Source: Burkholderiales bacterium (lineage in GTDB: Bacteria; Pseudomonadota; Gammaproteobacteria; Burkholderiales; Usitatibacteraceae). From it: a stretch of 11,409 bases of DNA. Positions 1-11,409 of this stretch are shown here, in pieces; the first letter of the stretch is position 1; the number at the start of each line of letters is the position of its first letter. The stretch is from positions 1 through 11,409 of the forward strand of contig JADGRS010000060.1 in NCBI GenBank assembly GCA_017880705.1, read 5' to 3'. Both the position numbers and the translations under genes were made by a program. The notes beneath the pieces are model-generated. The model searched no databases. It was not told where the DNA came from and saw nothing but the letters and a program-made list of their open reading frames with translations.

Positions 1-385
1 CGAAATGCTCGAGGCGCTTCCACAGCCCGGCGTGGGCGCCTCGAGCTCGATGCCCCACAAGCGCAATCCCGTCGCCTGCGTGCACGCGCTCGCCGCCGCG
101 ACGCGGATGCCCGGACTCCTCGCGACGCTGCACGCCGCGGGAATCGCCGAGCATGAGCGCGCCCTGGGCGGATGGCAGGCCGAGCTCGCGCTGGTGCCCG
201 AGATCGCCGCGGCGCTCGGAACGAGCCTCGACTTCCTCGGCACCATCGCAACCTCGCTCGTGGTGAACCCCGCGCCCATGAAGGCGAACCTCTCGGAATA
301 CGGCGAGGCCGGCGGCGCCAAGGCCGAGGCGGTGCAACCCGCCGTCGACGAGCTCCTCGCCGCGCTCGCCCCCTATCTTTCCTGA
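1..385 (+). CDS. pcaB: 3-carboxy-cis,cis-muconate cycloisomerase, C-terminal part (5' end outside window)
   Basis: This is the end of a fumarase/aspartase-superfamily lyase. The open frame runs from the window edge (first full codon at 2) to a TGA at 383-385. About 17 residues in, it has the superfamily signature GASSSMPHKRNP, the mobile loop that carries the catalytic Ser. The stretch EHERALGGWQAE further on is typical of PcaB. PcaB cycloisomerises 3-carboxymuconate to 4-carboxymuconolactone in the cytosol, in the protocatechuate branch of the beta-ketoadipate pathway. The next two genes encode the following two steps, which supports PcaB over adenylosuccinate lyase. The visible C-terminus looks short: after the MKANL segment only about 30 residues remain, whereas I recall many family members continuing into a further helical domain. 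A short-form PcaB is the simplest reading. The ATG at position 5 is internal, not the gene start. Confidence 0.88.
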   Translation, partial: EMLEALPQPGVGASSSMPHKRNPVACVHALAAATRMPGLLATLHAAGIAEHERALGGWQAELALVPEIAAALGTSLDFLGTIATSLVVNPAPMKANLSEYGEAGGAKAEAVQPAVDELLAALAPYLS

Positions 386-390
386 CACCG

Positions 391-396
391 AGGAGG
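391..396 (+). promoter_or_regulatory. Strong Shine-Dalgarno of pcaC
   Basis: AGGAGG lies 9 nt before the ATG at 406. It fixes the pcaC start inside a longer open frame that begins upstream in the pcaB sequence. It sits in the 20-nt pcaB-pcaC gap. Confidence 0.8.
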
Positions 397-405
397 CGCG
401 TCGCG

Positions 406-813
406 ATGAGCCGAGATGCATACCTGAAGGGAATGAAGACGCGCCGCAAGGTGCTGGGAGACGAATGGGTCGACCGGGCCGAGCGCAACAAGGACGCCTT
501 CAACGCCGAGTTCCAGGAACTCATCACCCGTTACGCGTGGGACGAGATCTGGAACCGCAAGGGCCTGCCGCACGCGACGCGACGCATGCTGGTGATCGCG
601 ACGATGGTGGCGCTCGGCCGCTGGGAAGAGTTCCAGCTGCATGTGCGCGCGGCGCTGCAATCGGGAGACCTCTCCCGGGACGACATCAAGGAAGTGCTCC
701 TCCAATCGGCAGTCTATTGCGGCGTGCCGGCGGCCAATACCGCGTTCAAGGAAGCGCGCGCGGTGATCGGGGAGGTCTCGAAGGTGAAGAACGGGAAGAA
801 GCGCGGGAAGTGA
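406..813 (+). CDS. pcaC: 4-carboxymuconolactone decarboxylase
   Basis: A 135-residue protein of the carboxymuconolactone decarboxylase (CMD/AhpD-like) family, the usual size for a stand-alone PcaC. It decarboxylates 4-carboxymuconolactone to beta-ketoadipate enol-lactone. Visible family features are the N-terminal segment RRKVLGDEWVDRA (about 13-25), TRYAWDEIWNRKGL (about 41-54), the conserved His79 in QLHVRAAL, and YCGVPAANTAF (about 104-114). The C-terminus is a Lys/Arg-rich tail. The ATG at 406 is chosen because it has a strong AGGAGG and matches the usual PcaC N-terminus. The open frame itself reaches back to 172, but that part is pcaB in another frame. The gene follows pcaB by 20 nt and overlaps pcaD by 4 nt, so the three are surely co-transcribed. 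Confidence 0.95.
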   Translation: MSRDAYLKGMKTRRKVLGDEWVDRAERNKDAFNAEFQELITRYAWDEIWNRKGLPHATRRMLVIATMVALGRWEEFQLHVRAALQSGDLSRDDIKEVLLQSAVYCGVPAANTAFKEARAVIGEVSKVKNGKKRGK

Positions 814-1580
814 GCGTCGCGCCGCTTCATTTCATCGACGCGGGCGCGGGCCCCGCGGTCGTCCTGGTGCACGCCATAGGCTGCGACCTGCACATGTGGG
901 ACGAGCTCGCCGCGGACCTCATCGCGAACGGCATGCGCGTGGTGCGCGTCGACGTGCGCGGCCATGGCGCGAGCCCGGTTCCAGAACGCCCCTACTCGCT
1001 TGCCGAGCTCGCCGGAGACGTCGCCGCCGTGCTCGATCGATGCGGCGTCGCCAGGGCGCATTGGGTGGGATTGTCGATGGGTGGGATGATCGGCCAGGCG
1101 TTCGCCATCGAGCGCGGCGAGCGCCTCGCCAAGCTCGTGCTCGCGAATACGACGAGCTCCTACGGCGCCGACGGGCGCAAGATGTGGGAGGCGCGCGCCA
1201 AGGCAGTCGAGGATGGAGGCATGGCGGCGATCACCGATCTCGCGATGACGCGCTATTTCTCCGACGAATTCAGGGCGCGCCGCCCTGATGTCGTCGAGCG
1301 CGTTCGCGGCCGCTTCCTCGAGACGAATCCGAAGGGCTACATCGGCTGCTGCGACGCGATCCGCGACCTCGACTACACGGCCCAATTGCCGCGAATCGCC
1401 GCGCCGACGCTCGTCATCGCCGGCGAGAAGGATGCGGGCACGCCCCCGGCGATGTCGGAGGAGATCGCCAAGCGCGTCCCCGATGCCCGGCTCGCGATCA
1501 TCCCCGGCGCCGCCCATCTCTCGGCGGCCGAAAAGGCCGCCGAGTTCGCGGCGCTGGTCCGCGATTTCCTGGCGGCCTAG
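810..1580 (+). CDS. pcaD: 3-oxoadipate enol-lactonase (alpha/beta-hydrolase)
   Basis: A 256-residue alpha/beta-hydrolase that hydrolyses beta-ketoadipate enol-lactone to beta-ketoadipate, the step after PcaC. The nucleophile elbow is GLSMGG with Ser89. Asp208 (in IAGEKDAGTPP) and His236 (in PGAAHLS) complete a Ser-Asp-His triad. The oxyanion-hole region is LVHAIGCDLHMW (about 19-30), and DVRGHGAS follows at 48-55. The start is a GTG at 810-812 that overlaps the pcaC stop as GTGA, so translation is probably coupled. Only a weak purine-rich stretch (GGGAAG) precedes it. The open frame extends further upstream, but that part is pcaC sequence out of frame. The gene ends 2 nt from the stop codon of the convergent EamA gene. 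Length and order (pcaB-C-D) match known clusters, so confidence is high. Confidence 0.94.
   Translation: MSVAPLHFIDAGAGPAVVLVHAIGCDLHMWDELAADLIANGMRVVRVDVRGHGASPVPERPYSLAELAGDVAAVLDRCGVARAHWVGLSMGGMIGQAFAIERGERLAKLVLANTTSSYGADGRKMWEARAKAVEDGGMAAITDLAMTRYFSDEFRARRPDVVERVRGRFLETNPKGYIGCCDAIRDLDYTAQLPRIAAPTLVIAGEKDAGTPPAMSEEIAKRVPDARLAIIPGAAHLSAAEKAAEFAALVRDFLAA
1520..1544. other. 10-bp perfect hairpin inside the 3' end of pcaD
   Basis: The arms 1520-1529 and 1535-1544 are perfectly complementary around the loop GAAAA. The hairpin encodes an Ala/Glu-rich helix of PcaD, so codon choice may explain it. It also falls about 40 nt beyond the stop codon of the convergent EamA gene on the - strand, where it could mark or stabilise that transcript's 3' end. 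Neither strand has a U-run after it, so it is not called an intrinsic terminator. Confidence 0.4.
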
Positions 1581-1582
1581 CG

Positions 1583-2500
1583 TCAGAATCCGACGATGAA
1601 TGCGGTGCCGGCAACGCCCAGGATCGCGGCGGCGACGAGCGCCGGCGTGAGCGTCTCGCTCTTGCGCAGGAACGCGTGGCCGAGAAGGAGCGTCACGAAC
1701 ACTTCCATCGACGAGATGAGCGCGACGCGCGACATCGGGCTGCGGTTCAACGCGGCGAAATAGAGCATCTGGCCGAGGGAGCTCATCACGCCGGCGCCGA
1801 TCAGCCAGGGGTTCGGCCGCGCGAAGGTCGCCCGCACCGCGCGGGCGTAGTCGGCCCTGAAGGACGCTGTCACGAGGAAGAGGAGCGCGCCGACGAGGCA
1901 TCCCAGCGTCGCGCCCAGGAGCGCGTCGTGTGCTTCCGCGAGACCCATCTTGCGCAGCAGGTAGCCCGAAGAGTAGCCGAGGGCGGAGACGATTCCGTAC
2001 GCGTAGCCGAAGCGAACGAGGCGCGAGCCGCGCGGCTCGATCCTCGCGCTCACCGCGGGGCTCGCGATCATGAGCACGCCGAAGCTCGCGAGAAGGAGGA
2101 GCATTCCCACGGTCATGCCGCCCGTCATCCGCTCCCCGAGGACCGCGACGCCGAGCAGCACCGCGAAGAAGGGATTGAGTCGCTTCAGCGTCGCCGAGCG
2201 CATCGCGCCCAGCCGATGCACGGATTCGTAGAAGAAGACGCGGCCCACGAACGCGGTGAGGACGCCCGCGCCCGCGAACCAGAGAAGCGCTCGCGGCGTC
2301 ACCGTCTCGAAGCCCCGGGCCACTCCCATCGCGATCCATGCGCCGCCCGCGATGAGCGTGGTGAGCAGCAGCGAGACGAACGCGCCATTGTCTTCCGCGT
2401 CGGGCCGCGCGCCGCGCGCGATGGTCACGTTGGATGCCGCGAAGCTCATCGCAGAGGCAATGGCGAGCGCGTCGCCCAGGAGCAGGTCCGCGTCGCTCAA
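1583..2500 (-). CDS. EamA/DMT-family transporter, 10 TM
   Basis: A 305-residue, strongly hydrophobic inner-membrane protein with the two-fold repeat of the drug/metabolite transporter superfamily. The first EamA unit covers about 8-146 and ends in the typical NPFFAVLLGVAVLGERMT. The second covers about 165-303 and has the matching SSMEVFVTLLLGHAFLRK. Family members export or import metabolites such as amino acids, but the substrate cannot be read from sequence. The start is a TTG (2498-2500), because no ATG or GTG lies upstream in frame and a later start would cut into TM1. Only a weak AGGCG precedes it. It begins 28 nt after the MFS gene and is the last gene of the minus-strand run. It converges on pcaD with a 2-nt gap. 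Confidence 0.85.
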   Translation of the reverse strand: MSDADLLLGDALAIASAMSFAASNVTIARGARPDAEDNGAFVSLLLTTLIAGGAWIAMGVARGFETVTPRALLWFAGAGVLTAFVGRVFFYESVHRLGAMRSATLKRLNPFFAVLLGVAVLGERMTGGMTVGMLLLLASFGVLMIASPAVSARIEPRGSRLVRFGYAYGIVSALGYSSGYLLRKMGLAEAHDALLGATLGCLVGALLFLVTASFRADYARAVRATFARPNPWLIGAGVMSSLGQMLYFAALNRSPMSRVALISSMEVFVTLLLGHAFLRKSETLTPALVAAAILGVAGTAFIVGF

Positions 2501-2528
2501 GAGACGCCTGGGAGCCGGCGCGCGAGGA

Positions 2529-3779
2529 TCACGCGCTCTTCGCCGCGCTTTCGTCCGGCATCGCGAGGATGAAGAGATTCGCCACCACGATGGTCCCGGC
2601 GAGGAACCAGAAAGTCGCGATGAGGCCGTAGCGGTCCGCGATCATCCCGCCGACGAGCGGCGCCACCGACGCGCCGAGCGATTGCGCGCCGAAGAGGATG
2701 CCGATGCTCGTCCCGCCCATGTTCTTCGGCGTCGACTCGAGGAGCCATGCCTGGAGCACCGGGCGGATCGCGTAGAGGAAGAAGCCCAGCACCGCGATGA
2801 ACGCGATGAAGGCCTGCGACTTGCCGGCGAAGGCCATGAAGAAGAGGACCACGCCCGTCATGAACATGCTCGTCATCATGATGCTGCGACGCCCCATCCG
2901 ATCGGAGAGGTGGCCCGCGATCGGCGTCGCGGCGAAGCCCGCGGCCTGCAGCGCGAACATTCCGGCGCCGACCCATAGCGGCGAATAGCCCATCTCGTAG
3001 GCGAGGTACACCGGCAGGAACGTGAGGAGCGCATTCTGCGTCATCGAGCGGAACGCCGAGCTTGCCGTGAGCAGCACCAGCGAGCGGTTCCGGAAAAGCT
3101 CGGCCACGCCGCCGAAGTAGTCGCGCAGGGATTGGATGCGGCCCTCGTCGTCGGGCCGGGCTTTCTTCGCGCCGACGCGCAGCGTGCCGAGCATCACGAG
3201 GAGAAGAAGCGACATCACGAGGCCCGGAATCACGTTCAGCATCACGACTTCGCGCCACGACAGCACCGCGAGGAGCGAGCCGACCGCGAGCGGCGCGAGC
3301 GCGTCGCCGACGTTGCCCCCCATGCCGTGGATCGAGAGCACCAGGCCCTTCCTCTCGGGGAAGCGGCGCGCCAGCGTCGGAATCGCCGTCGGATGCCACA
3401 GGCTGTTGCCGAAGCCCACCAACGCGACGCAGCTGAGGAGCATCAGGTATCCGTGGCTGAATCCCATCAGCAGGTACGGGAACCCGACCCAGAAGAGCGA
3501 GAGCGCCATCAGCATGCCCTTGCGCCCCACGGTGTCGACGAGGATGCCGCCCGGCACGTTCGCGATCGCGCCCGCGAGGTACTGGCACGTCATGATGAGG
3601 CCGATCTGGCTGTAGGAGAGGCCGAGCTCCTTGCCGATGATCGGAAGGATCAGGTAGAACGTCGCCGGGTACCAGTGCGTGAGCGAATGCCCGAGCGTGA
3701 TGAGCCACACCTCGCGGAAGGAGCCGCGGGAAGCTTCGGCCTCGCGGGACTTATCTCGAAGGGCGACGCTCGCGCTCAT
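2529..3779 (-). CDS. MFS transporter, 12 TM
   Basis: A 416-residue major facilitator superfamily protein. The loop between TM2 and TM3 carries motif A as GGILVDTVGRKGML (77-90). A second copy, GHLSDRMGRRSIMM, starts the same loop of the C-terminal half (289-302). A charged central loop (about 203-232) separates the two six-helix bundles. The N-terminal segment GHSLTHWYPATFYLILP (30-46) resembles the fosmidomycin-resistance (Fsr)-like branch, a comparison made from memory. It is probably a proton-coupled importer or exporter of a small organic compound. The ATG at 3779 has GGGAAGG upstream, inside the end of the SBP1 gene, and lies 3 nt after that gene's stop, so it belongs to the same operon. 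Whether it exports a pathway product or imports substrate is open. Confidence 0.87.
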   Translation of the reverse strand: MSASVALRDKSREAEASRGSFREVWLITLGHSLTHWYPATFYLILPIIGKELGLSYSQIGLIMTCQYLAGAIANVPGGILVDTVGRKGMLMALSLFWVGFPYLLMGFSHGYLMLLSCVALVGFGNSLWHPTAIPTLARRFPERKGLVLSIHGMGGNVGDALAPLAVGSLLAVLSWREVVMLNVIPGLVMSLLLLVMLGTLRVGAKKARPDDEGRIQSLRDYFGGVAELFRNRSLVLLTASSAFRSMTQNALLTFLPVYLAYEMGYSPLWVGAGMFALQAAGFAATPIAGHLSDRMGRRSIMMTSMFMTGVVLFFMAFAGKSQAFIAFIAVLGFFLYAIRPVLQAWLLESTPKNMGGTSIGILFGAQSLGASVAPLVGGMIADRYGLIATFWFLAGTIVVANLFILAMPDESAAKSA

Positions 3780-3782
3780 GGC

Positions 3783-4820
3783 CTACCTTCCCGCCTTCGT
3801 GAGGACAATATCCTCGAAGAGCTTGCTCCACTTGCCGCTCTCGTCGAGGGAACGCACGGGATCCGTGGCGATGATCTTCACGCCCTTCAGCGGAGAGGCC
3901 ACCTTCACATTGGTGGGCACGTAGTCGAGGCCCGCCATCGCGCCCTGCCCGTCGGGGCCGAGCAGGTACTCGTAGAAGAGGAGCGCGGCGCCGGGATGGG
4001 GCGCGTTCCTTGCCACGCCGACCGCATTGGCTCGCGCGACCGCGGGCTCGATCGCGAACCAGTCGATGGGCGCGCCCTTCTTCTTCGCCTGCTCGGGCAT
4101 GTAGTTGTAGACCGTGAGCGCCAGCGGGACCTCGCCCGAGACCACCATATTGGTGAGCAGCGTGTGCCCGTGGCGCGGCGACAGGCCATTGGTGGCGACG
4201 AGATCCTGGAAGTACTTGATGCCCTGCGGCTCGCCGCCCATCAGGTGGACCACCGTCGCGAACCAGTCGTCGTTCTTCGACTCGATGCCGAGCTTGCCCT
4301 TCCACTTCGGGTCGAGGAGATCCTTGTAGGTCTTCGGCAGGTCCTGTTTCCTGATCACGTCGGTGTTGTACGCCTGCACCCACACCGATAGTATCGTCGC
4401 CGCCCATTCCCGGTGGGCAGGAACCGATCCGGCCTGCAAGTCCTTGTGCGCCGGCGAGCTCACCGGCAGCAGGATCTTCTCGCGCGCCAGCGCCTCCATC
4501 TCGGGCGCGCCGAAATGCACCACATCCATCGTGTAGCGCTTCGCCCTCGCCTCGCTGATGGCGCGCTGCAGCACCTTGTCGGTTCCGGCGCGCCAGACGG
4601 TCACCTTGACGGCGTACTTCTCCTCGAAGGGCTTGACGATCGCCGGGAGGTCCTTCTCCGCGATCGTCGTGTAGAGCGTGAGGCCGCCCTCCTTCTTCGC
4701 GGCGGCGACGATCCGGTCCATGCGGTCGGCGCCGGCGTAACTCGCGAGGTCCTGCGCCGCGGCCGCCCGCGCGCCCGCGAGCATCGCGGCGCACAGCAGC
4801 AGCGTTGCACCCACCTTCAT
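3783..4820 (-). CDS. ABC transporter periplasmic substrate-binding protein, FbpA-like, Sec signal (SBP1)
   Basis: A 345-residue extracellular solute-binding protein of the FbpA/SBP_bac_6-like group, which includes ferric-iron and small-organic binders. Residues 1-22 form a Sec-type signal peptide (hydrophobic LLLCAAMLAG, then an Ala-rich cleavage site before QDL). Hinge and domain landmarks are AKKEGGLTLYTT (41-52), QAYNTDVI (149-156), PKWKGKLGIE (171-180), LTVYNY (235-240), KGAPIDWF (248-255) and a C-terminal APHPGAALLFYEYLL. The YNY lies roughly where iron-binding FbpA proteins carry paired tyrosines, so an iron or iron-chelate ligand is possible, but an organic acid is equally plausible. 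The ATG at 4820 has CCGGAG upstream, overlapping the end of cupin C (4-nt gap), so translation is probably coupled. It is a clear paralogue of SBP2 (5379-6452). Confidence 0.9.
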   Translation of the reverse strand: MKVGATLLLCAAMLAGARAAAAQDLASYAGADRMDRIVAAAKKEGGLTLYTTIAEKDLPAIVKPFEEKYAVKVTVWRAGTDKVLQRAISEARAKRYTMDVVHFGAPEMEALAREKILLPVSSPAHKDLQAGSVPAHREWAATILSVWVQAYNTDVIRKQDLPKTYKDLLDPKWKGKLGIESKNDDWFATVVHLMGGEPQGIKYFQDLVATNGLSPRHGHTLLTNMVVSGEVPLALTVYNYMPEQAKKKGAPIDWFAIEPAVARANAVGVARNAPHPGAALLFYEYLLGPDGQGAMAGLDYVPTNVKVASPLKGVKIIATDPVRSLDESGKWSKLFEDIVLTKAGR

Positions 4821-4824
4821 CGGC

Positions 4825-5379
4825 TCACTCCGGGTGATTGAGGTCTTCCTCGAAATGGCGCGGCACGAATCCGCGGCCCTCGGGCGTGGGCTCCGTGGGG
4901 CGCGGGATCACCGACTTCTGGAACAGCAGGTTCATGAACATGATCATGGGCTTCGGCTTGAGCACGAGCGCGCGCGCGGGCTTCACCGGGTCGGCGTTGA
5001 AGTGCTGGTGCACGCAGTTCATGTGCACGATCGCGACGTCCCCGGCGGACCAGTCGTAGCGAATGCCGTCGTGGACCTCGTAGCCCTTGCCGTCGAGGAT
5101 GTAGAACGCGGCCTCGTTCACGTGCCCGTGCTTCTGCGTGCGGCCTCCGGGCGCGTACTCCTCGAGATGCACGTGCAGCGTCTGCGTCATGCCGTCGACG
5201 GGCTCGATGAAGTGCTTGCTGAAAGACTGGGGCCCGTCGTTGAAGAGGAGGTCCTTGCCCTTGATGACGCGCGGCATCGCGCGCAGGCGCTTCAGCTCGT
5301 CGGAGAGGCTGTACGCGCCCTGGATGCCGCGAACGAAGACGCGGTCCTTCTTGCTGCTGTAGTGGGATTCCTTGCCCAT
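4825..5379 (-). CDS. Single-domain cupin (cupin C), complete metal site, paralogue of cupin A
   Basis: A 184-residue cytosolic cupin with no signal peptide. Motif 1 is GGRTQKHGHVNEAAFYILDG and gives His84, His86 and Glu89. Motif 2 runs G113 to N128 (AGDVAIVHMNCVHQHFN) and gives His124. That is the full 3-His/1-Glu ligand set of a mononuclear metal enzyme (usually Fe, Mn, Ni or Zn). The usual Pro of motif 2 is His119. Cupins of this kind include dioxygenases, isomerases and decarboxylases, and the reaction cannot be named here. The start is the ATG at 5379, which shares its A with the SBP2 stop (TGATG) and has GGAGC upstream. The reading frame extends 15 codons further, into SBP2, but that start lacks support. 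About 123 of 152 aligned residues match cupin A (my count by eye). It is sandwiched between the two SBP genes. Confidence 0.88.
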   Translation of the reverse strand: MGKESHYSSKKDRVFVRGIQGAYSLSDELKRLRAMPRVIKGKDLLFNDGPQSFSKHFIEPVDGMTQTLHVHLEEYAPGGRTQKHGHVNEAAFYILDGKGYEVHDGIRYDWSAGDVAIVHMNCVHQHFNADPVKPARALVLKPKPMIMFMNLLFQKSVIPRPTEPTPEGRGFVPRHFEEDLNHPE

Positions 5380-6452
5380 CAACGCGCTCCATTCGTGAAG
5401 GTGTCCGCGTACAGCTTCGCCCACTTCTGGAACTCATCGAGCGTCACGCGCGCGTCCACGAATCTCATGGGAATCTTGTTCAGCAGCGTGTCGACCTTCT
5501 TGCTGGTGGGGACGAAGTCGCGCGCCGCGAGGATCTTCTGGCCCTCGGGGCTGATCTCGAAATCATAGAAGAGCACGGCCGCGTGCGGGTGCGGCGCCTT
5601 CCTCGCGACTCCGATTCCGTTGGGGCGCACGATCGCGGGACCGATGGTGAACCAGTCGATCGGAGCGCCCTTGCGCTTCAGCTGCTCTGCCTTGTAATTG
5701 TAGACCGTGAGGCTGAGCGGGATCTCGCCGGAGACCACGAGCTGCGTGAGGAGCGTGTGCCCCTTGCGCACCGAGACCCCGTTGTTCGCGACGATATCCT
5801 TGAAGACCTTGCCGGCGCGCGCCTCTCCCAGCTCGGCGTATTCGCCCGCGAGCCAGTCGATATCCTCCTGCTCGATGCCGAGCTTGCCCTTCCACCGGGG
5901 CTGCGCCAGATCTTCCCAGGTCTTGGGAAGCTCCTCCTTCTTCACCAGGCTCGTGTTGTAGGCCTGGGCGAACACATTCAGGCGCGTTCCGACCCACTCG
6001 CCATGGGGCATGATGGCCGGCGCGATGAGATCGGCGAGATAGGGCGACTTCACCGCCTCGAAGATCTTCTCGCGGTGCAGCGCCTCGAGCTCGGGCCCGT
6101 TGGTCTCGGCGACGTCCATGGTGAAGCGATTGCCGCGCGCCTCCGTCACCGCGCGCTGCAACACCTTCTCGCTCGAGGCGCGCCACACGTTCACCTTAAC
6201 TCCGTACTTCTTCTCGAACGCGGCGACGAGCACGCCCATGTCGTCGCTCTGGGCGGACGTGTAGATGCTGAGCTCGCCCTCCTTCCTCGCGCCCTCGATA
6301 AGCTTCTGCGCGCGGTCGGGCCCCGCGTAGGACGCGACGTCGGCCACGGTGGCGCCGGGCTTCACCTGTGCCCGCGCGGGCCACGCGAGCAGCGCCACGG
6401 CGACGCCGGCGGCGAAGGAGGACACGATGAAACTGCGTCTGCTGTCGGTCAT
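5379..6452 (-). CDS. ABC transporter periplasmic substrate-binding protein, FbpA-like, Tat-type signal (SBP2)
   Basis: A 357-residue paralogue of SBP1. The N-terminus MTDSRRSFIV fits the twin-arginine consensus (S-R-R-x-F-I). It is followed by a moderately hydrophobic stretch and an ARA-Q cleavage site near residue 28, so it is probably exported folded by the Tat system. Shared landmarks with SBP1 are ARKEGELSIYTS (55-66), QAYNTSLVKKEELPKTW (163-179), RWKGKLGIE (186-194), GHTLLTQLVVSGEIPLSLTVYNY (231-253), KGAPIDWF (261-268) and APHPHAAVLFYDF. The start is the ATG at 6452. The open frame reaches 6803, but that extension runs through the terminator and the porin gene. The Shine-Dalgarno is only GAGG at 6459-6462, directly after the T-run of the porin terminator, so expression probably depends on read-through. 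The stop overlaps the cupin C start by one base. Confidence 0.9.
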   Translation of the reverse strand: MTDSRRSFIVSSFAAGVAVALLAWPARAQVKPGATVADVASYAGPDRAQKLIEGARKEGELSIYTSAQSDDMGVLVAAFEKKYGVKVNVWRASSEKVLQRAVTEARGNRFTMDVAETNGPELEALHREKIFEAVKSPYLADLIAPAIMPHGEWVGTRLNVFAQAYNTSLVKKEELPKTWEDLAQPRWKGKLGIEQEDIDWLAGEYAELGEARAGKVFKDIVANNGVSVRKGHTLLTQLVVSGEIPLSLTVYNYKAEQLKRKGAPIDWFTIGPAIVRPNGIGVARKAPHPHAAVLFYDFEISPEGQKILAARDFVPTSKKVDTLLNKIPMRFVDARVTLDEFQKWAKLYADTFTNGAR

Positions 6453-6462
6453 TCGGTGCCTC

Positions 6463-6489
6463 AAAAAAAGACGGGCGCCTGGGCGCCCG
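6463..6489 (-). terminator. Rho-independent terminator after the porin, just before SBP2
   Basis: Read on the - strand, a 7-bp G/C stem (CGGGCGC / GCGCCCG; arms 6483-6489 and 6472-6478) closes a CCAG loop and runs into TC followed by seven T (the T-run is 6463-6469). It lies about 53 nt after the porin stop and ends 10 nt before the SBP2 start codon, so it separates high-level porin expression from the SBP2-cupin C-SBP1-transporter genes. Confidence 0.85.
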
Positions 6490-6509
6490 CCGACTACGTC
6501 CCGCTCCCC

Positions 6510-6527
6510 GGCGCCCGCTCGGGCGCC
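6510..6527 (-). repeat. Second GC-rich hairpin between porin stop and terminator
   Basis: GGCGCCC (6510-6516) and GGGCGCC (6521-6527) pair perfectly around a 4-nt loop. The arms share GGGCGCC with the terminator stem at 6472-6489, so arms of the two hairpins could also pair with each other. It has no T-run of its own. It may strengthen termination or protect the porin mRNA 3' end. Confidence 0.55.
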
Positions 6528-6541
6528 CGCGTCATCGGAGC

Positions 6542-7771
6542 TCAGAAGTTGTGGTTGATGCCGACCGCGTACTGGTCGAGATCCTCTCCGATCGCCGGAG
6601 TCTGCTCGACGCTGTTGTTGTATTGCGCGGAGAATCCGTTGCGCAGCAATGCCCCCATCGCGTACACGTAGGTGCGCTTGGAGAAATAGTAGGCGACGCC
6701 GAACTGCAGTTGCGAGCCGTCGAGGCCGTCCGTGGTGCACACGGCGTTCACGCGCGAGCAACTGCCCTTCATCGACTTGATGTATTCGAGCGCCGTGCGC
6801 CACTGGCCGTTCCAGCGCGCGTCCCAGGCGACCTGGTACGCATTGTTCTTGTAGCTCAGGAAGCGCCCCGTGATCGTCGCGCTCTCGTCGTACTTCTTCT
6901 GGATGAAGTCGACCTCGAAGGTGTGCACGCCGAGACGATACTCGAGCATCGCCTGCGTCGCCTTGTCCTTGGAGCGCACCGCCTGGTCGTTGAAGTTCGA
7001 CATCGCCGTCGTCGGCACGTTGCGCGAGCCGCCGAAGAGGTCCCAGTGGATCTCGTGCGCCAGCGAAATCTTCACCGGTCCGGCTTCGTACTTCACGGCG
7101 GTCGACCAGACGTGCGGGTGGCGCGTCGAGGTGTCGGCCTCGTCCGTGGAGTACTGCGTGGCGGCATCGAAGCCCGCGAGAGTCGGAGTCTCGTACTGCA
7201 CCACGTTCGCGCGGCGCAAGTGGAAGCTCGACGCGGAGTTGGTGCCGAAGCCCGTCTTGCGAAGCACGTTGCTGGTCGACACGAAGTTGCCGCTCGAGAT
7301 GCCGAGGAAGGCCAGATCGTCGCCGTACTTCTTGAGCGGCGTGTCCATCCGGCCGAGCTTGATGGTCCCGTAGGCGTTGTTGGTCAGGCCGACGAACGAG
7401 TCGCGTTGCGCGAAAGCCGAGTTGTTGCTGTCCACGGAGAACGCCGTCTCCAGCTGGAAGATCGCCCTCAGGCCGCCGCCCAGCTTTTCCGAGCCGCGCA
7501 CACCGAAGTTCGAGTTGCTCGACTCCATCTCGTTGCGCCGGATGATGCCGCTCGTGCCCGTCGGCGCGGTTGCAAGTGTGGACACGACGGCGCCCGCCGG
7601 GGTCGCGTCCTTGCCGGAAGGACGGACGATCTCGGGATAAATCTTGCCGTAGAGGATGACGACCGAATCCGCTCCCTCGTTGCCGGTCTCATCGTGGCCA
7701 CCGGCCGCCATCGCGCCTTGGGAAGCCAGCGCGGCGCCGAGCGCCATGACCAAGAGTTTCTTGTTGTGCAT
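6542..7771 (-). CDS. Outer-membrane general porin
   Basis: A 409-residue 16-strand-type Gram-negative porin, near the usual length for betaproteobacterial porins. Residues 1-22 are a Sec signal (KKLLVMALGAALASQGAMA). The mature part starts with a short polar stretch, then the first strand DSVVILYGKIYPEIV. Family landmarks are SNFGVRGSEKLGGGLRAIFQ (87-106), YGTIKLGRMDTP (134-145, leading into constriction loop 3), FGVAYYFSKRTYVYA (357-371) and the terminal strand YAVGINHNF ending in Phe, the BAM signal. Cys338 and Cys345 sit in a probable extracellular loop. The porin allows diffusion of small solutes into the periplasm, presumably including the ligand of the neighbouring SBPs. The ATG at 7771 is preferred over one at 7786 because GGAGG (7780-7784) precedes it by 8 nt. 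It has its own promoter and terminator. Confidence 0.93.
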   Translation of the reverse strand: MHNKKLLVMALGAALASQGAMAAGGHDETGNEGADSVVILYGKIYPEIVRPSGKDATPAGAVVSTLATAPTGTSGIIRRNEMESSNSNFGVRGSEKLGGGLRAIFQLETAFSVDSNNSAFAQRDSFVGLTNNAYGTIKLGRMDTPLKKYGDDLAFLGISSGNFVSTSNVLRKTGFGTNSASSFHLRRANVVQYETPTLAGFDAATQYSTDEADTSTRHPHVWSTAVKYEAGPVKISLAHEIHWDLFGGSRNVPTTAMSNFNDQAVRSKDKATQAMLEYRLGVHTFEVDFIQKKYDESATITGRFLSYKNNAYQVAWDARWNGQWRTALEYIKSMKGSCSRVNAVCTTDGLDGSQLQFGVAYYFSKRTYVYAMGALLRNGFSAQYNNSVEQTPAIGEDLDQYAVGINHNF

Positions 7772-7779
7772 TCTTGAGG

Positions 7780-7784
7780 CCTCC
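7780..7784 (-). promoter_or_regulatory. Shine-Dalgarno that fixes the porin start
   Basis: GGAGG on the - strand lies 8 nt before the ATG at 7771 and would be inside the coding region if the ATG at 7786 were used. This decides for the shorter porin, whose N-terminus is then a normal signal peptide. Confidence 0.8.
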
Positions 7785-7790
7785 AAGTGT

Positions 7791-7827
7791 GTTCCTTTAT
7801 ATGGAATTTATATCTGCGGACAGGAAC
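7791..7827. promoter_or_regulatory. Operator-like inverted repeat flanking the porin -10 box
   Basis: The arms GTTCCT (7791-7796) and AGGAAC (7822-7827) are perfect inverted copies 31 bp apart centre to centre, about three helical turns. They enclose the AT-rich -10 region and probable start of transcription of the porin. A dimeric or tetrameric repressor could bind here. There is no direct evidence, and 6-bp arms can occur by chance. Confidence 0.35.
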
Positions 7828-7834
7828 GAGCCAA
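7807..7834 (-). promoter_or_regulatory. Sigma70-type promoter of the porin
   Basis: On the - strand TTGGCT (7829-7834, 4/6 to the -35 consensus) and TATAAA (7807-7812, 5/6 to the -10 consensus) are 16 nt apart. Transcription would start near 7800 and give a 5' leader of about 29 nt with the GGAGG in it. The region is strikingly AT-rich compared with the rest of the window. Confidence 0.65.
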
Positions 7835-7835
7835 G

Positions 7836-7871
7836 AGTATCGGCGCGTGGCAGTTTTCGTCAAGCGAAAAC
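7836..7871 (-). promoter_or_regulatory. Second possible porin promoter within a perfect 7-bp dyad
   Basis: GTTTTCG (7853-7859) and CGAAAAC (7865-7871) form a perfect inverted repeat with a 5-nt centre. On the - strand the dyad contains TTGACG (7858-7863, 5/6 to -35). A GATACT (7836-7841, 4/6 to -10) follows at 16 nt. It could be an upstream promoter whose -35 is covered by a regulator, or just a binding site upstream of the stronger promoter at 7807-7834. Confidence 0.35.
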
Positions 7872-8011
7872 GGGCCCGAAAGAGGCGCTTGTGGCTTTCG
7901 CGCGACACGCCAGCGGTGGCGGAAAACCTTTGCAGATCAGGGCTTTCCTCTATGCGGAAAGGGCCGCCTCGCGTGTCCGAGGCTCGAAACGCCACAGCTT
8001 AACTTAGATCT

Positions 8012-9139
8012 CTAAGCAGCCCGCGGCACCTTGGGCGGAAGCTCGGCGAGCTCGGCCTTGTAGGCGTCGTCCATGCGCGATTTGAGGCCGTGCTTGGCGA
8101 GCGCCTCGGCGAACATCTGCCGCACCTCGGCCGACTCGTCGGCATAGTCGATCTGGTCGCCGCCGAGGCGCTTGCTGATCCACGCCTTGGGCACGCCCTG
8201 GGCGTTGCGAATGGCCACGCCCTCCTGCTTGAAGGCGAGATAGCGCGCGGGCGTGGTGCCCGTGTTGAAGTGCTGGTGGAACCACATGTTGGGCGGGGTG
8301 ATGAGCGTGCCTTCGCGCCATTCGTAGCGCTTCGGCTTCTCGCCCTCGGGCCACATGAGGCTGAAGCCCTCGCCGCTCATCACGATCACGTAGGCGCCGG
8401 GACCGTGCGCATGCGCCTTCTTGTAGGTGCCGACGGGAAACTGCGAGATGTGGCTGTTCATCGAGCCCTTGGCCATGTTGAAGCGGATGTGGCCGCCGCC
8501 CGCCCCGCGCTCCTTCGCCGCGATGAGCGGAAGGTTCACCGCGTCGGCGACGAAGTTGGTGTCGAGCAGGAGCCCCTTCTGCTCGCCCTTGTTGGCGAAG
8601 TAGTCGGGCTCGCCGCTGAAGCGGTCGCGGAAGTCGTACTTCGTGTCGAAGACGAAGCCGAGGTCGCCGAAGGCGTTGATGATCGCCGGCGCGTTCGTGA
8701 CCGACACGAAGCGCGCGGCATCCTTGCCCGACGCGTTGAAATGCTGGTGCATCGTGTTGAGCGGAATCGCGAAGATGGCGCCCGCCTTCCACTCGAAGGT
8801 GATCTTCGCGCCGGCGCCGTTCCACACCGCGGTCGAGCCGCGGCCGTCGAGGACGTACACCATCTCTTCGAATAGTTGCCGCTGCGCGGCCAGCTCGCCG
8901 CCCGGCGGGATCTCGCAGACGTAGGCGTCGTTCGACGTGCGCGAGGCGTCATGGTTGAGGAACACGCCCTTGCCGCCGCGCCGCGCCCAGGGCTTCAGCT
9001 CCAGCGTGTGCAGGTTCGGCTGGTAGATCGCGCTCTGGATCTCGAGGCCTTCGGACTGCACCCAGCGCGTGTACGGCGTCTCCTTCTCGGTGGCGAACTT
9101 CTTCGCCATTTCCTCCGAGACTCGTGCTTCTTGTGCCAT
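8012..9139 (-). CDS. Two-domain cupin (bicupin), gentisate-dioxygenase-like architecture
   Basis: A 375-residue cytosolic protein with two cupin domains. Domain 1 (about 68-150) has motif 1 as GGELAAQRQLFEE, so the HxH pair is Gln86/Gln88 with Glu91 kept. Its motif 2, AGAIFAIPLNTMHQHFN, keeps His131. Domain 2 (about 215-305) has GTYKKAHAHGPGAYV with His243 and His245 but Gly248 in place of Glu. Its motif 2, EGTLITPPNMWFHQHFN, adds His288. Domain 2 thus offers three His, as in gentisate-type ring-cleaving dioxygenases, while domain 1 looks catalytically dead. Relatives are, as I recall, sometimes annotated as ethanolamine ammonia-lyase-activating proteins, a name without support here. The ATG at 9139 follows the cupin B stop directly (TAAATG) with GGAGG 5 nt upstream. 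Gentisate or another dihydroxy-aromatic is a possible substrate, not shown. Confidence 0.85.
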   Translation of the reverse strand: MAQEARVSEEMAKKFATEKETPYTRWVQSEGLEIQSAIYQPNLHTLELKPWARRGGKGVFLNHDASRTSNDAYVCEIPPGGELAAQRQLFEEMVYVLDGRGSTAVWNGAGAKITFEWKAGAIFAIPLNTMHQHFNASGKDAARFVSVTNAPAIINAFGDLGFVFDTKYDFRDRFSGEPDYFANKGEQKGLLLDTNFVADAVNLPLIAAKERGAGGGHIRFNMAKGSMNSHISQFPVGTYKKAHAHGPGAYVIVMSGEGFSLMWPEGEKPKRYEWREGTLITPPNMWFHQHFNTGTTPARYLAFKQEGVAIRNAQGVPKAWISKRLGGDQIDYADESAEVRQMFAEALAKHGLKSRMDDAYKAELAELPPKVPRAA

Positions 9140-9754
9140 TTACGCCTCCAGCTTGACGCGTCCGCGCAGGAAATCCTCGACCATCTCGGGCGTCACCGTC
9201 ACACCCGGGCGATATTCCGGCGCGTTCTCGAGCTGCTCGAGGTCGTTCAAGCCGCTCGCCTTGTAGATGCGGTTCACGGCGGAGATGAGGCGCACGGGGC
9301 GCTCGGGATCCGCGTTGAAATGCTGGCTCGCGGTATTGGGCGGGATGTAGATCACGTCGCCCGCCTCCCAGTCGTAGCGCTTCACTTCCTTCTGCGGCTC
9401 CCAGTGGTACGTGTCGGTGATCTCGACGTCGTAGTCCTGGTGCAGGTCATAGCCCCTGCCCTCGACGACATAGAGGCATTCCTCGGCGAGCTGGCGGTGC
9501 TTGCCCGACTTGCTCCCCGGCGGAATGATCAGCATGTACGCATCGACCGTCTCCATGCGCGTGTTCATTCCCTCGTTCAGCAGGTGCTTGAGCAGCCCGT
9601 GGCGCGACAGCTCCCACGGCATCTCCTCGGGCCGCACGATCTTCTTGCGCTTCGCGTTGCGCGCGGGCATCTGCGCCGCGTCGTCGAGCAACGCCTGGTA
9701 CAGCGCCTGGTTCTGCGTGCCCTTCTTCCATGCCTTCGATTCGCCCCATGCCAT
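9140..9754 (-). CDS. Single-domain cupin with degenerate metal site (cupin B)
   Basis: A 204-residue cytosolic protein with one cupin domain at about 70-160. Motif 1 is GSKSGKHRQLAEECLYVVEG: His86 is kept, the second His is Gln88, and Glu91 is kept. In motif 2 (AGDVIYIPPNTASQHFN) the usual His is Ser143, but the following QHFN with His145 remains. The remaining ligands may bind metal weakly or not at all, so a structural or regulatory role, or pairing with the bicupin, is possible. The motif 1 spacing and HRQL/QRQL sequence match domain 1 of the neighbouring bicupin. The N-terminal 65 residues are basic and helical-looking. The ATG at 9754 is the only sensible start and has AGGGGA upstream. 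The frame extends far upstream only as a shadow of cupin A. The stop abuts the bicupin ATG with no gap. Confidence 0.82.
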   Translation of the reverse strand: MAWGESKAWKKGTQNQALYQALLDDAAQMPARNAKRKKIVRPEEMPWELSRHGLLKHLLNEGMNTRMETVDAYMLIIPPGSKSGKHRQLAEECLYVVEGRGYDLHQDYDVEITDTYHWEPQKEVKRYDWEAGDVIYIPPNTASQHFNADPERPVRLISAVNRIYKASGLNDLEQLENAPEYRPGVTVTPEMVEDFLRGRVKLEA

Positions 9755-9765
9755 GATCGTGTCCC

Positions 9766-10371
9766 CTACCTGGATTCGTGATTGAAGTCGTCTTCGCCCT
9801 CGCGCGCCCTGAAGCCTTCCGCGCCGGGAGCGGGGGTCGACGGGCGCGGTTCCACCTGCTTCTGGAACAGCATGTTCATGAACATGTACATGGGCTTGGT
9901 CTTGATGACGAGCGCGCGCGCCGGCTTCGTCGGGCTCGCGTTGAAATGCTGGTGCACGCAGTTGTTGTGCACGATCGCGATGTCGCCCGCCTTCCAGTCG
10001 TAGCGGATGCCGTCGTGGATCTCGTAGCCCTCGCCGTCGAGGATGTAGAACGCGGCCTCGTTCACGTGGCCGTGCTTCTGGGACCTGCCGCCGGGGCCGT
10101 ACTCTTCCATATGCAGATGAAAGGTCTGGGTGATCCCGTCCTTGGGCTCGACGTAGTGGCGGCTGTAGGCCTGGGGGCCGTCGTTGAATTTGATCTCCTT
10201 GCCCTTGCGCACCCGCGGCATCGCCCGCAGGCGCTTCAGCTCGTCCGAGAGGCTGTACGCCCCCTGGATGCCGCGCACGAAGATGCGGTCCTTCTTGCTG
10301 TGGTAGTGGGATTCGTTGCCGACCGCCTGGCCGGGCTGCGAGGTTTCCTGTTTCTTCACGGGCGTGTCCAT
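9766..10371 (-). CDS. Single-domain cupin (cupin A), complete metal site, paralogue of cupin C
   Basis: A 201-residue cytosolic cupin, close paralogue of cupin C. Motif 1, GGRSQKHGHVNEAAFYILDG, gives His100, His102 and Glu105. Motif 2, AGDIAIVHNNCVHQHFN, gives His140. The ligand set is the full 3-His/1-Glu type. A segment shared with cupin C, SKKDRIFVRGIQGAYSLSDE (25-44), lies well before the cupin barrel and may be a family-specific N-terminal module. Cupin A has about 17 extra N-terminal residues (KKQETSQPGQAV region) and a different acidic tail. The ATG at 10371 has AGGAG (10381-10385) 9 nt upstream. It follows the ATPase gene by 33 nt and precedes cupin B by 11 nt, so it is probably in one transcript with both. 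Metal-dependent oxygenase or isomerase chemistry is likely, with substrate unknown. Confidence 0.88.
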   Translation of the reverse strand: MDTPVKKQETSQPGQAVGNESHYHSKKDRIFVRGIQGAYSLSDELKRLRAMPRVRKGKEIKFNDGPQAYSRHYVEPKDGITQTFHLHMEEYGPGGRSQKHGHVNEAAFYILDGEGYEIHDGIRYDWKAGDIAIVHNNCVHQHFNASPTKPARALVIKTKPMYMFMNMLFQKQVEPRPSTPAPGAEGFRAREGEDDFNHESR

Positions 10372-10404
10372 GGGTTGCTTCTCCTGTTTGCCAATTATCC
10401 CCGC

Positions 10405-11409
10405 TCAGGCGGCGCGCAACGCGACGCACTTTTCCGGATCGAGCTGCACGAAGATCGGGTTCCCGATGGGCGTGCGCAGGGACGGATGCTGGCGCGACAG
10501 CAGCATCCGCTCGCCGAGCTTCACCTGGAAGTCGAGCACCTCCCCGAGGAACACCTTCTGGTCCACGATGCCCTGCCACACGTTGCCGGCGCGCTGCGGC
10601 CTGGCCTCGGAAAGCTCGACGTCCTCGGGACGCACCGAGACGAGCACCTTGTCGTCGGGACGAAAGCTCTCGGTGGCGAGCACGCTCACGTCCCCGATCT
10701 CGGTGCGCACGCGATAGCGATGCTCGCCCGCGTCTGGGCCCAGCACCGAGCCGTCGAGGAAGTTGGTGCTGCCGACGAAATCGGCGACGAACGCGCTCGC
10801 CGGCCGCTCGTAGATGTCGCGCGGGCTCCCGATCTGCTGGATGCGCCCCTCGTTCATGACCGCGATCTCGTGGGAGAGCGCGAGCGCCTCGCTCTGGTCG
10901 TGGGTAACGTAGACGGTGGTGATCCTGAGCTCGCGCTGCAGGCGCTTCAGCTCGAAGCGCAGCGACTGGCGAAGCTTCGCGTCGAGGTTGGAGAGCGGCT
11001 CGTCGAGGAGGAGCAGCTGCGGCTCCATCACCAGGGCGCGGGCGAGCGCGAGGCGCTGCTGCTGGCCGCCGGACAGCGCCGGCGCCGGCCGGTCGGCATA
11101 GCGTTCCATCTCCACGAGCTGCAGCGCCTTCGTCACCCTGTCCCTGATCTCGGCCTTGGCGATGTGCCGCACGCTCAGCGGATAGGCCACGTTGTCGAAC
11201 ACCGTCATGTGCGGCCAGATCGCATAGGACTGGAACACCATGCCGAAGCCGCGGCGGTTCGGCGCGACGAAGACGCCCTTCGCCGACGAGTAGACGATGC
11301 GCTCGTTCACCGCGATCTCGCCCAGCCTCGGCCTCTCGAGGCCGGCAATGGAACGCAGCGTCGTGGTCTTCCCGCAGCCGCTCGGGCCGAGGAGCGTGAA
11401 GAGCTTCCC
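10405..11409 (-). CDS. ABC transporter ATP-binding protein, FbpC/PotA-like (N-terminus outside window)
   Basis: The frame is open to the window edge, and 334 residues are visible. It has Walker A GPSGCGKT (visible residues 8-15), Q-loop FQSYAIWPH (59-67), signature LSGGQQQRLALARAL (112-126), Walker B LLLLDEPLSNLDAKL (132-146) and H-loop VTHDQSEAL (168-176). A C-terminal extension with SVRPEDVEL (258-266) and FVGSTNFLDG (211-220) is the TOBE-type regulatory domain of importers for iron, polyamines, phosphonates and similar solutes. Only about 30 residues should be missing. A GTG at 11308-11310 is internal, since it lies after Walker A. It energises an importer whose binding proteins are probably SBP1 and/or SBP2. 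No permease is visible, and it may lie to the right of the window. The cupin A gene follows after 33 nt. Confidence 0.94.
   Translation of the reverse strand, partial: GKLFTLLGPSGCGKTTTLRSIAGLERPRLGEIAVNERIVYSSAKGVFVAPNRRGFGMVFQSYAIWPHMTVFDNVAYPLSVRHIAKAEIRDRVTKALQLVEMERYADRPAPALSGGQQQRLALARALVMEPQLLLLDEPLSNLDAKLRQSLRFELKRLQRELRITTVYVTHDQSEALALSHEIAVMNEGRIQQIGSPRDIYERPASAFVADFVGSTNFLDGSVLGPDAGEHRYRVRTEIGDVSVLATESFRPDDKVLVSVRPEDVELSEARPQRAGNVWQGIVDQKVFLGEVLDFQVKLGERMLLSRQHPSLRTPIGNPIFVQLDPEKCVALRAA

What the first reader, a model, noticed from the sequence alone, without database searches (positions are those of the whole stretch)
3783..11409. An uncharacterised uptake-plus-cupin module: ABC ATPase, two SBPs, porin, four cupin proteins, two secondary transporters
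Ten consecutive minus-strand genes combine outer-membrane entry, periplasmic capture, ATP-driven import and four possible metal enzymes. No named catabolic operon that I recall pairs FbpA-like SBPs with four cupins of this type. Tight spacing (0-33 nt, or overlaps) inside each half supports shared function. The pca genes alongside suggest an aromatic or related carboxylate substrate, but this is inference.
Basis: partly seen in the sequence, partly recalled or inferred. Interest (0 to 1): 0.75.

Follow-up and report, generated by a model that had tools for sequence, protein, structure and literature searches.

The report
Cupin–EutA–nickel aromatic acid module
This is part of a widespread but unstudied bacterial gene set that seems to import and break down an aromatic acid, and it unexpectedly pairs cupin metal enzymes with a histidine-rich EutA-like ATPase and nickel genes, which suggests a new way of supplying metal to such enzymes.

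Summary
The genes are real: ten minus-strand genes (ABC ATPase, four cupins, porin, two SBPs, MFS, EamA). The stated span covers eight; the two secondary transporters lie at 1583-3779. The larger finding lies off the contig edge. All 41 well-flanked bicupin loci examined have an EutA (PF06277) homologue, 40 within the fetched flanks and one about 10.5 kb away. EutA is known as reactivase of ethanolamine ammonia-lyase, yet EutB was found neither in this genome nor in 41 of 50 relatives (many incomplete). Cupin-linked EutA proteins form their own branch; one subfamily has histidine-rich tails. NicO nickel-transporter genes lie within 15 kb of the bicupin in 16 of 50 genomes, 0.48 expected; six loci also hold NikR. 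An isophthalate-dioxygenase-like Rieske oxygenase and Pht5-like proteins recur. Best reading: an aromatic di- or polycarboxylate catabolic module whose cupins are nickel (or cobalt) enzymes served by a His-rich EutA-like ATPase. Association is shown; substrate, metal and chaperone role are inferred. Nine searches of an open-access library found no paper on it.

The parts
10405..11409 (-). ABC transporter ATPase (ABC_tran + TOBE_2), start lost at the contig end; probably continues from contig C119 of the same genome
   Evidence: Pfam 105.8 and 42.2 bits; synteny with L005
9766..10371 (-). cupin A, single cupin with 3-His(+Glu) site H100, H102, E105, H140
   Evidence: Pfam Cupin_2; residues kept in 45, 45, 42 and 45 of 45 aligned sequences
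9140..9754 (-). cupin B, single cupin; two metal ligands lost here (H88Q, H143S), H86 and E92 kept
   Evidence: Pfam Cupin_2; H88 and H143 each kept in 55 of 59 aligned sequences, lost together in the window, L005, L006, L012
8012..9139 (-). bicupin C; 3-His site H243, H245, H288 in the C-terminal domain; N-terminal site not conserved
6542..7771 (-). outer-membrane porin (Porin_4)
   Evidence: Pfam 126 bits
5379..6452 (-). SBP1, FbpA-fold periplasmic solute-binding protein without the FbpA tandem tyrosine
   Evidence: Pfam SBP_bac_8; alignments
4825..5379 (-). cupin D, close paralogue of cupin A, metal ligands kept
   Evidence: Pfam Cupin_2; 74% identical to cupin A; three His in 16 of 16, Glu in 15 of 16 aligned sequences
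3783..4820 (-). SBP2, FbpA-fold periplasmic solute-binding protein without the FbpA tandem tyrosine
   Evidence: Pfam SBP_bac_8; alignments
2529..3779 (-). MFS transporter
   Evidence: Pfam MFS_1 193.1 bits; present in 19 of 41 well-flanked loci
1583..2500 (-). EamA/DMT transporter
   Evidence: Pfam EamA 93.2 bits; in 6 of 41 well-flanked loci
2..1580 (+). neighbouring protocatechuate-branch genes pcaB (fragment 2-385), pcaC (406-813), pcaD (810-1580); adjacency seen only in the near relatives L005 and L006
   Evidence: NCBIfam TIGR02425 159 bits (cut-off 155.7), TIGR02427 280.5 (cut-off 255.85); pcaB fragment 102.1 bits, below its full-length cut-off of 595; pcaD in 2 of 79 loci

Best explanation
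The window is the downstream half of a conserved catabolic module that takes up and oxidatively breaks down an aromatic di- or polycarboxylate, and whose cupin enzymes carry nickel (possibly cobalt) supplied or restored by a dedicated His-rich, EutA-like ATPase. Shown by sequence: the genes, their recurrence together, and the co-location with EutA-like, NicO/NikR, Rieske and Pht5-like genes. Inferred path: a porin lets the acid through the outer membrane; FbpA-fold SBPs and the ABC importer (or the MFS) bring it in; an isophthalate-dioxygenase-like Rieske oxygenase with a BenC-like reductase dihydroxylates the ring; Pht5-like and class II aldolase-type proteins remove carboxylates; cupins A/D and bicupin C cleave or further oxidise the product at 3-His metal sites; in this lineage the product may drain into the neighbouring pca pathway. 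The EutA-like ATPase, by analogy with ATP- or GTP-driven metal chaperones and with EutA as a reactivase, loads or resets the cupin metal.
For: EutA homologue in 40 of 41 bicupin C loci with at least 7 kb on both sides (39 if half the query must align); the exception L013 has EutA on the same contig about 10.5 kb from the bicupin. In 399 genomes of the order, bicupin-C-type proteins occur in 4 and all 4 have EutA; EutA occurs in 12, and in the 8 without the bicupin it adjoins EutB. EutB absent from this genome and found in 9 of 50 relatives' genomes. Cupin-linked EutA lie on one side of a branch (support 96) apart from the two EutB-linked groups (99, 100). His-rich C-tail in 45 of 48 and acidic-His N-motif in 40 of 41 of one cupin-linked EutA subfamily; 0 of 4 and 0 of 5 in canonical EutA. 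NicO within 15 kb of bicupin C in 16 of 50 genomes against 0.48 expected; NicO in C119; NikR 180.9 bits over a cut-off of 83. Rieske 52% identical to isophthalate dioxygenase, both carboxylate-binding residues kept in 25 of 25; this genome holds one. C119 precedes the window by synteny with L005. 3-His sites invariant in cupins A and D and bicupin C.
Against: No biochemical evidence. 34 of the 50 genomes show no NicO within 15 kb of bicupin C, though some contigs end sooner; this genome has no NikR. The second cupin-linked EutA subfamily, mostly beside a paralogous bicupin, lacks His tails, so tails are not needed for every pairing. The Rieske gene is in only 17 of 41 loci, and in this genome on another contig. 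Cupin ligand sets of this type are recalled to hold Fe, Mn, Ni or Zn, so sequence does not fix the metal. This window's cupin B lacks two ligands. C119 and the window share no overlap.
Confidence: 0.5

Rival explanations
1. Same catabolic module, but the cupins are ordinary Fe(II) (or Mn) dioxygenases or decarboxylases; the EutA-like ATPase has another role and the nickel genes serve a different enzyme or are mere neighbours.
Against: NicO clusters with bicupin C about 33 times more often than uniform placement predicts, 15 of 20 inspected regions of the low-scoring NicO type hold EutA, and NikR lies in the same locus in six Comamonadaceae loci and L020.
Confidence: 0.22
2. The EutA-like ATPase activates the substrate (ASKHA-type phosphorylation or ATP-driven chemistry, as recalled for HyuA-like and acetone carboxylase-like enzymes) and is itself a pathway enzyme, not a chaperone.
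For: EutA-like proteins also score weakly, below the cut-offs, with BcrAD_BadFG and other ASKHA ATPase models.
Against: His-rich tails and nickel neighbours point to metal handling; two EutA subfamilies each tend to pair with their own bicupin.
Confidence: 0.13
3. The EutA-like protein reactivates an adenosylcobalamin enzyme encoded elsewhere, with NicO importing cobalt; cupin linkage is incidental.
For: EutA's characterised role (recalled) is reactivation of ethanolamine ammonia-lyase; NicO-family proteins can carry cobalt (recalled). B12 enzymes near the loci were not searched for.
Against: EutB absent from this genome and not found in 41 of 50 relatives; EutA adjoins a bicupin in different contexts, also on a Phyllobacterium plasmid; NikR is a nickel regulator family.
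Confidence: 0.07
4. A ferric iron uptake system (FbpA-like SBP, ABC) that feeds iron cupins.
For: The SBPs' nearest solved relatives are iron-binding proteins.
Against: The FbpA tandem tyrosine is not conserved: the position aligned by eye with its first Tyr is Asn in 86 of 105 aligned SBPs and not Tyr in any of the 103 listed; porin, Rieske and decarboxylase partners fit an organic substrate.
Confidence: 0.03

Closest known systems
Isophthalate dioxygenase pathway (iphA2CBA1, Comamonas testosteroni KF1)
   Same: The module's Rieske oxygenase (L047) is 52% identical over 420 aligned positions to the solved IPDO (9ina/9ioy) and keeps the Fe and Rieske ligands; the two carboxylate-binding residues R234 and H257 are kept in 25 of 25 (PMC12445078, passages read).
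   Different: F249 is Arg in 19 of 25 and Tyr in 6; F333 is Ile or Val; L198 is Asn in 19, so the substrate is probably not isophthalate itself. The passages read list oxygenase, reductase, transporter and dehydrogenase for the iph cluster, and the word 'cupin' does not occur in that paper's main text.
Phthalate degradation, 4,5-dihydroxyphthalate decarboxylase Pht5
   Same: The module's 328-aa protein (L076) is 46.7% identical to a plasmid gene annotated pht5 and 60.0% to one annotated 4,5-dihydroxyphthalate decarboxylase.
   Different: No Pfam or NCBIfam model hits it; most of its listed and annotated plasmid relatives are named ABC substrate-binding proteins; activity untested; embedded with cupins and EutA.
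EutA, ethanolamine ammonia-lyase reactivating factor
   Same: Full-length PF06277 match, 396.7 bits over residues 58-528.
   Different: Linked to cupins and not to EutB, separate branch, His-rich tails in one subfamily; below the cut-offs of the four NCBIfam EutA models that hit.
Gentisate / salicylate 1,2-dioxygenase bicupins
   Different: 10-17% identity; the invariant His triad lies in the C-terminal domain; far below the cut-off of the only NCBIfam model hit, 5-aminosalicylate 1,2-dioxygenase (36.2 against 650 bits).
HypB, UreG, CobW-type metal chaperones (recalled)
   Same: NTPase with His-rich tail next to nickel uptake genes and, in 13 of 79 loci, a CobW-type GTPase match.
   Different: EutA is an ASKHA ATPase, unrelated to the G3E GTPases (recalled); chaperone role not shown.

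Membership tests
EutA family (PF06277) | Domain match over the curated cut-off | tested here: met
   397.2 and 366.6 bits in this genome, cut-off 27
EutA family (PF06277) | Encoded with ethanolamine ammonia-lyase EutB | tested here: not met
   EutB 0 of 1 in own genome (87% complete), 9 of 50 in relatives' genomes; by contrast 13 of 13 EutA loci outside the cupin branch adjoin EutB
EutA family (PF06277) | NCBIfam equivalog cut-off for EutA | tested here: not met
   Best 332.8 bits against 598
EutA family (PF06277) | ATP-dependent reactivation of ethanolamine ammonia-lyase | not testable with these tools
   Needs biochemistry
Isophthalate dioxygenase | Rieske and mononuclear iron ligands | tested here: met
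   All kept in L047; H177, H182, D337 in 25 of 25
Isophthalate dioxygenase | R234 and H257 for the two carboxylates | tested here: met
   25 of 25 and own C153
Isophthalate dioxygenase | F249, F333 and L198 pocket | tested here: not met
   249 is R or Y and 333 I or V in 25 of 25; 198 is N in 19, A, M or L in the rest, L198 kept in one row (L027_3477)
Gentisate 1,2-dioxygenase | Bicupin fold | tested here: met
Gentisate 1,2-dioxygenase | Catalytic His triad in the N-terminal cupin (location recalled) | tested here: not met
   The N-terminal positions vary; the invariant triad is C-terminal
FbpA ferric-binding SBP | Tandem tyrosine iron ligands (recalled) | tested here: not met
   Position of the first Tyr is N in 86 of 105, not Tyr in the 103 listed
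Nickel cupin (acireductone dioxygenase, quercetinase type; recalled) | Bound nickel | not testable with these tools
   Only nickel gene co-location shown
Nickel cupin (acireductone dioxygenase, quercetinase type; recalled) | 3-His plus Glu cupin site | tested here: met
   Cupins A and D: His in every aligned row, Glu in 42 of 45 and 15 of 16; not met in this window's cupin B, and bicupin C has no Glu at its His site

The most novel reading that the evidence does not exclude
A branch of the EutA reactivase family has been taken over as a nickel chaperone or reactivase for cupin oxygenases: His-rich EutA-like ATPases, each with its own bicupin partner, load or repair a Ni centre in a new class of cupin enzymes that act in an undescribed pathway for aromatic polycarboxylates, such as those released from lignin, humic matter or char.
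Probability: 0.38. Interest if true: 0.85.

Novelty: new variant of a known kind. Interest (0 to 1): 0.7.

Why it matters
EutA has been seen as a servant of one B12 enzyme, and cupins are usually thought to pick up their metal unaided (both recalled). A conserved pairing of the two, with nickel genes alongside, would mean a dedicated ATP-driven metal-delivery or repair system for cupins and a nickel-dependent step in aerobic aromatic breakdown. It gives a directly testable route for many genes now named only 'EutA', 'ethanolamine ammonia lyase-activating protein' or 'cupin' (names seen), and for a substrate class relevant to soil carbon and plastic-related pollution.

Tried and rejected
Iron-uptake reading: rejected because the FbpA tandem tyrosine is not kept. 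The pca neighbourhood as evidence of substrate: dropped, since a pcaD match is in 2 of 79 loci. Isophthalate itself as substrate: not adopted, because pocket residues 198, 249 and 333 differ. The name 'ethanolamine ammonia lyase-activating protein' for bicupin C has no support in its sequence: it is a cupin. Ectoine 'EutA' (PMC5924519, passages read) is a different gene with the same name.

Led nowhere: the structure model of cupin A was poor (mean pLDDT 63.8) and was not searched. Foldseek's listed hits for bicupin C had query TM-scores of 0.43-0.50, so fold comparison gives the superfamily, not the reaction. Two automatic clusters (c1, SBP) were merged families; c1 was split. The one Sinorhizobium plasmid record that I opened carried no gene table for the stretch. 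Phylum-wide sampling with bicupin C found only this genome, 1 of 398, and EutA in 6 of 398. The Rieske-ferredoxin match on contig C153 has stops in its frame and is not used. Ten paper searches ran: nine on EutA, cupin, metallochaperone, isophthalate, Rieske and phthalate terms gave no description of this module, and one (52) looked up PDB codes. Only listings were seen, except passages of PMC12445078 and PMC5924519. The library holds open-licence PubMed Central papers only.

Dropped rows: one search kept the best 80 of 255 relatives (79 loci), so counts describe close relatives of bicupin C; 38 of 79 loci lacked 7 kb on both sides and were left out of the 41. In one search, 81 NicO rows became 71 after ten second fragments of one gene were left out by hand; contigs were matched to bicupin contigs by equal length. 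Of 25 low-scoring NicO rows 20 regions were fetched, of 46 high-scoring ones 20. In one search, 8 of 49 N-termini and 1 of 49 C-tails of the His-rich subfamily could not be parsed. The EutB search covered 50 of the 79 loci's genomes.
Full report
What is there. The window is one whole contig (C503) of an 87% complete genome assembly. On the minus strand it reads, in order: ABC ATPase (start cut off), cupin A, cupin B, bicupin C, porin, SBP1, cupin D, SBP2, MFS transporter, EamA transporter. On the plus strand stand a pcaB fragment, pcaC and pcaD; pcaC and pcaD pass NCBIfam cut-offs. The reported span holds the first eight minus-strand genes; the two secondary transporters are just outside it. 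Spacing is tight except for about 240 nt between bicupin C and the porin and 89 nt between porin and SBP1.

Does the arrangement recur? The genome-contig scan found 255 relatives of bicupin C; the best 80 were kept, giving 79 loci. Forty-one have at least 7 kb on both sides. In these, within the fetched flanks, cupin A/D occurs in 28, cupin B in 31, SBPs in 26, the ABC ATPase in 28, a fused two-domain permease in 25, MFS in 19, porin in 12 and EamA in 6. In the 25 loci that I labelled non-alphaproteobacterial from record titles, cupins A/D and B occur in 24 each and SBP and ABC in 21 each. In the 16 that I labelled alphaproteobacterial they are fewer (cupin A/D 4, cupin B 7, SBP 5, ABC 7), while bicupin C, the query, is present by selection.

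The constant partner is EutA. A PF06277 homologue lies in 40 of the 41 loci (39 if at least half the query must align). The one exception, L013, carries two EutA matches further along the same contig, the nearer about 10.5 kb from the bicupin. In this genome two EutA reach 366-397 bits against a cut-off of 27. EutB, the ethanolamine ammonia-lyase subunit that goes with EutA in known systems, was not found in this genome and in only 9 of 50 genomes of the loci. Independent sampling agrees: among 399 genomes of the order, four (this one included) have a bicupin-C-type protein and all four have EutA; twelve have EutA in all. The chance of four of four by random draw is about 5e-7, and about 2e-5 without the window's own genome (my arithmetic). 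In each of the four, an EutA directly adjoins a bicupin. In the other eight EutA genomes it adjoins EutB instead, as it does in the five further EutA loci of the phylum sample that I checked. EutA thus splits cleanly into an EutB-linked and a cupin-linked kind in these samples.

EutA family structure. A quick maximum-likelihood tree of 79 EutA proteins puts the 67 cupin-linked ones on one side of a branch with support 96, the five canonical EutB-linked ones on another (99) and seven low-scoring EutB-linked ones on a third (100) (midpoint root, several long branches flagged). Two main cupin-linked groups exist. One, usually with bicupin C, has an acidic His motif before the ATPase core (40 of 41 parsed) and a His-rich tail after it (at least five His in 45 of 48 parsed, median 16.5); the other, mostly beside a paralogous bicupin, has neither (0 of 18, 0 of 17), nor has canonical EutA (0 of 5, 0 of 4).

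This genome's upstream half. Contig C119 holds SBP, NicO, IclR regulator, BenC-like reductase, Pht5-like protein, EutA with His-rich tails, class II aldolase and fused permease, all on one strand. Its last bases may be the start of the ABC ATPase gene, and the window begins inside that gene. There is no shared sequence between the two, but in the near relative L005 one contig carries C119-like DNA (79-86% identical, positions 1-3512) followed by window-like DNA from 3701 on. Adjacency is therefore inferred, with strong support. A second, smaller set on contig C232 has Rieske, SBP, EutA and a bicupin 40% identical to bicupin C.

Nickel. The C119 gene is NicO, a nickel/cobalt transporter family, at 66.7 bits against a cut-off of 27.7; it stays below NCBIfam's stricter TIGR00802 cut-off (61.5 against 333). 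Six Comamonadaceae loci (L049, L054, L055, L059, L061, L075) carry NicO, CobW and NikR matches; one or two proteins of each kind were scanned, and the NikR passes an NCBIfam equivalog cut-off (180.9 against 83 bits). L020 has a more distant NikR. To test this against background I searched 50 of the loci's genomes: 71 NicO genes in all, 0.48 expected within 15 kb of bicupin C under uniform placement, and 16 found, in 16 genomes. These genomes are not independent, so the Poisson value of that call overstates the strength, but the excess is large. From the other side, 15 of 20 inspected regions around the low-scoring NicO type (of 25) hold EutA, against 3 of 20 around the high-scoring type (of 46). 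Against: 34 of 50 genomes show no NicO within 15 kb, and this genome has no NikR.

Aromatic chemistry. A Rieske oxygenase with LigXa_C domain occurs in 17 of 41 loci, and this genome has one on contig C153, 73% identical to the L047 protein, with Pht5-like, alcohol dehydrogenase-like and PanB-like genes beside it. Its closest solved relative is isophthalate dioxygenase 9ina: for the L047 protein 220 of 420 positions are identical. The paper on that enzyme (PMC12445078, passages read) assigns the two carboxylates to R234 and H257; both are kept in 25 of 25 module enzymes and in this genome's. Residue 249, where the paper's F249H change together with V178A widened the substrate range, is Arg in 19 and Tyr in 6. 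This points to a dicarboxylate in meta arrangement with a further polar or acidic group (inference). A Pht5-like protein occurs in 14 of 41 loci.

Verdict. The surprising part is outside the window: a bicupin almost always accompanied by an EutA-like ATPase, often with nickel genes. Association is shown; the metal, the chaperone role, the reaction of each cupin and the substrate are inferred.

Noticed in passing
window 9140-9754: Cupin B has lost two metal ligands in concert (H88Q, H143S), as in L005, L006 and L012, while 55 of 59 aligned sequences keep both: an apparent pseudo-enzyme or regulatory subunit in this lineage.
   Followed up: partly
L096 9029-9228 (contig C119 end): An inverted repeat of about 30 bases, seen by eye, sits after the permease gene and may explain the contig break.
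   Followed up: no
L093 5591-10701 (contig C232): Second, smaller set in the same genome: Rieske oxygenase, SBP, EutA without His tail and a bicupin 40% identical to bicupin C.
   Followed up: partly
L071 11753-12163 and relatives (L046, L051, L052, L073, L083): A small protein (136 aa in L071) without Pfam match that in L071 ends in a His-rich tail, next to cupin B; possibly another metal-handling part.
   Followed up: no
L094 8969-17716 (Phyllobacterium zundukense plasmid): A variant in which a tripartite tricarboxylate transporter and a TPP enzyme stand beside the bicupin and EutA; the bicupin is annotated 'hypothetical protein'.
   Followed up: partly
L036 and L079: Two metagenome-assembled genomes are titled Bordetella parapertussis although they carry this module, otherwise seen mostly in environmental assemblies; the label may be wrong.
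   Followed up: no
window 8012-9139 relatives: Public sources name bicupin C 'ethanolamine ammonia lyase-activating protein' or 'oxalate decarboxylase/phosphoglucose isomerase-like protein', names without clear support in its sequence.
   Followed up: yes
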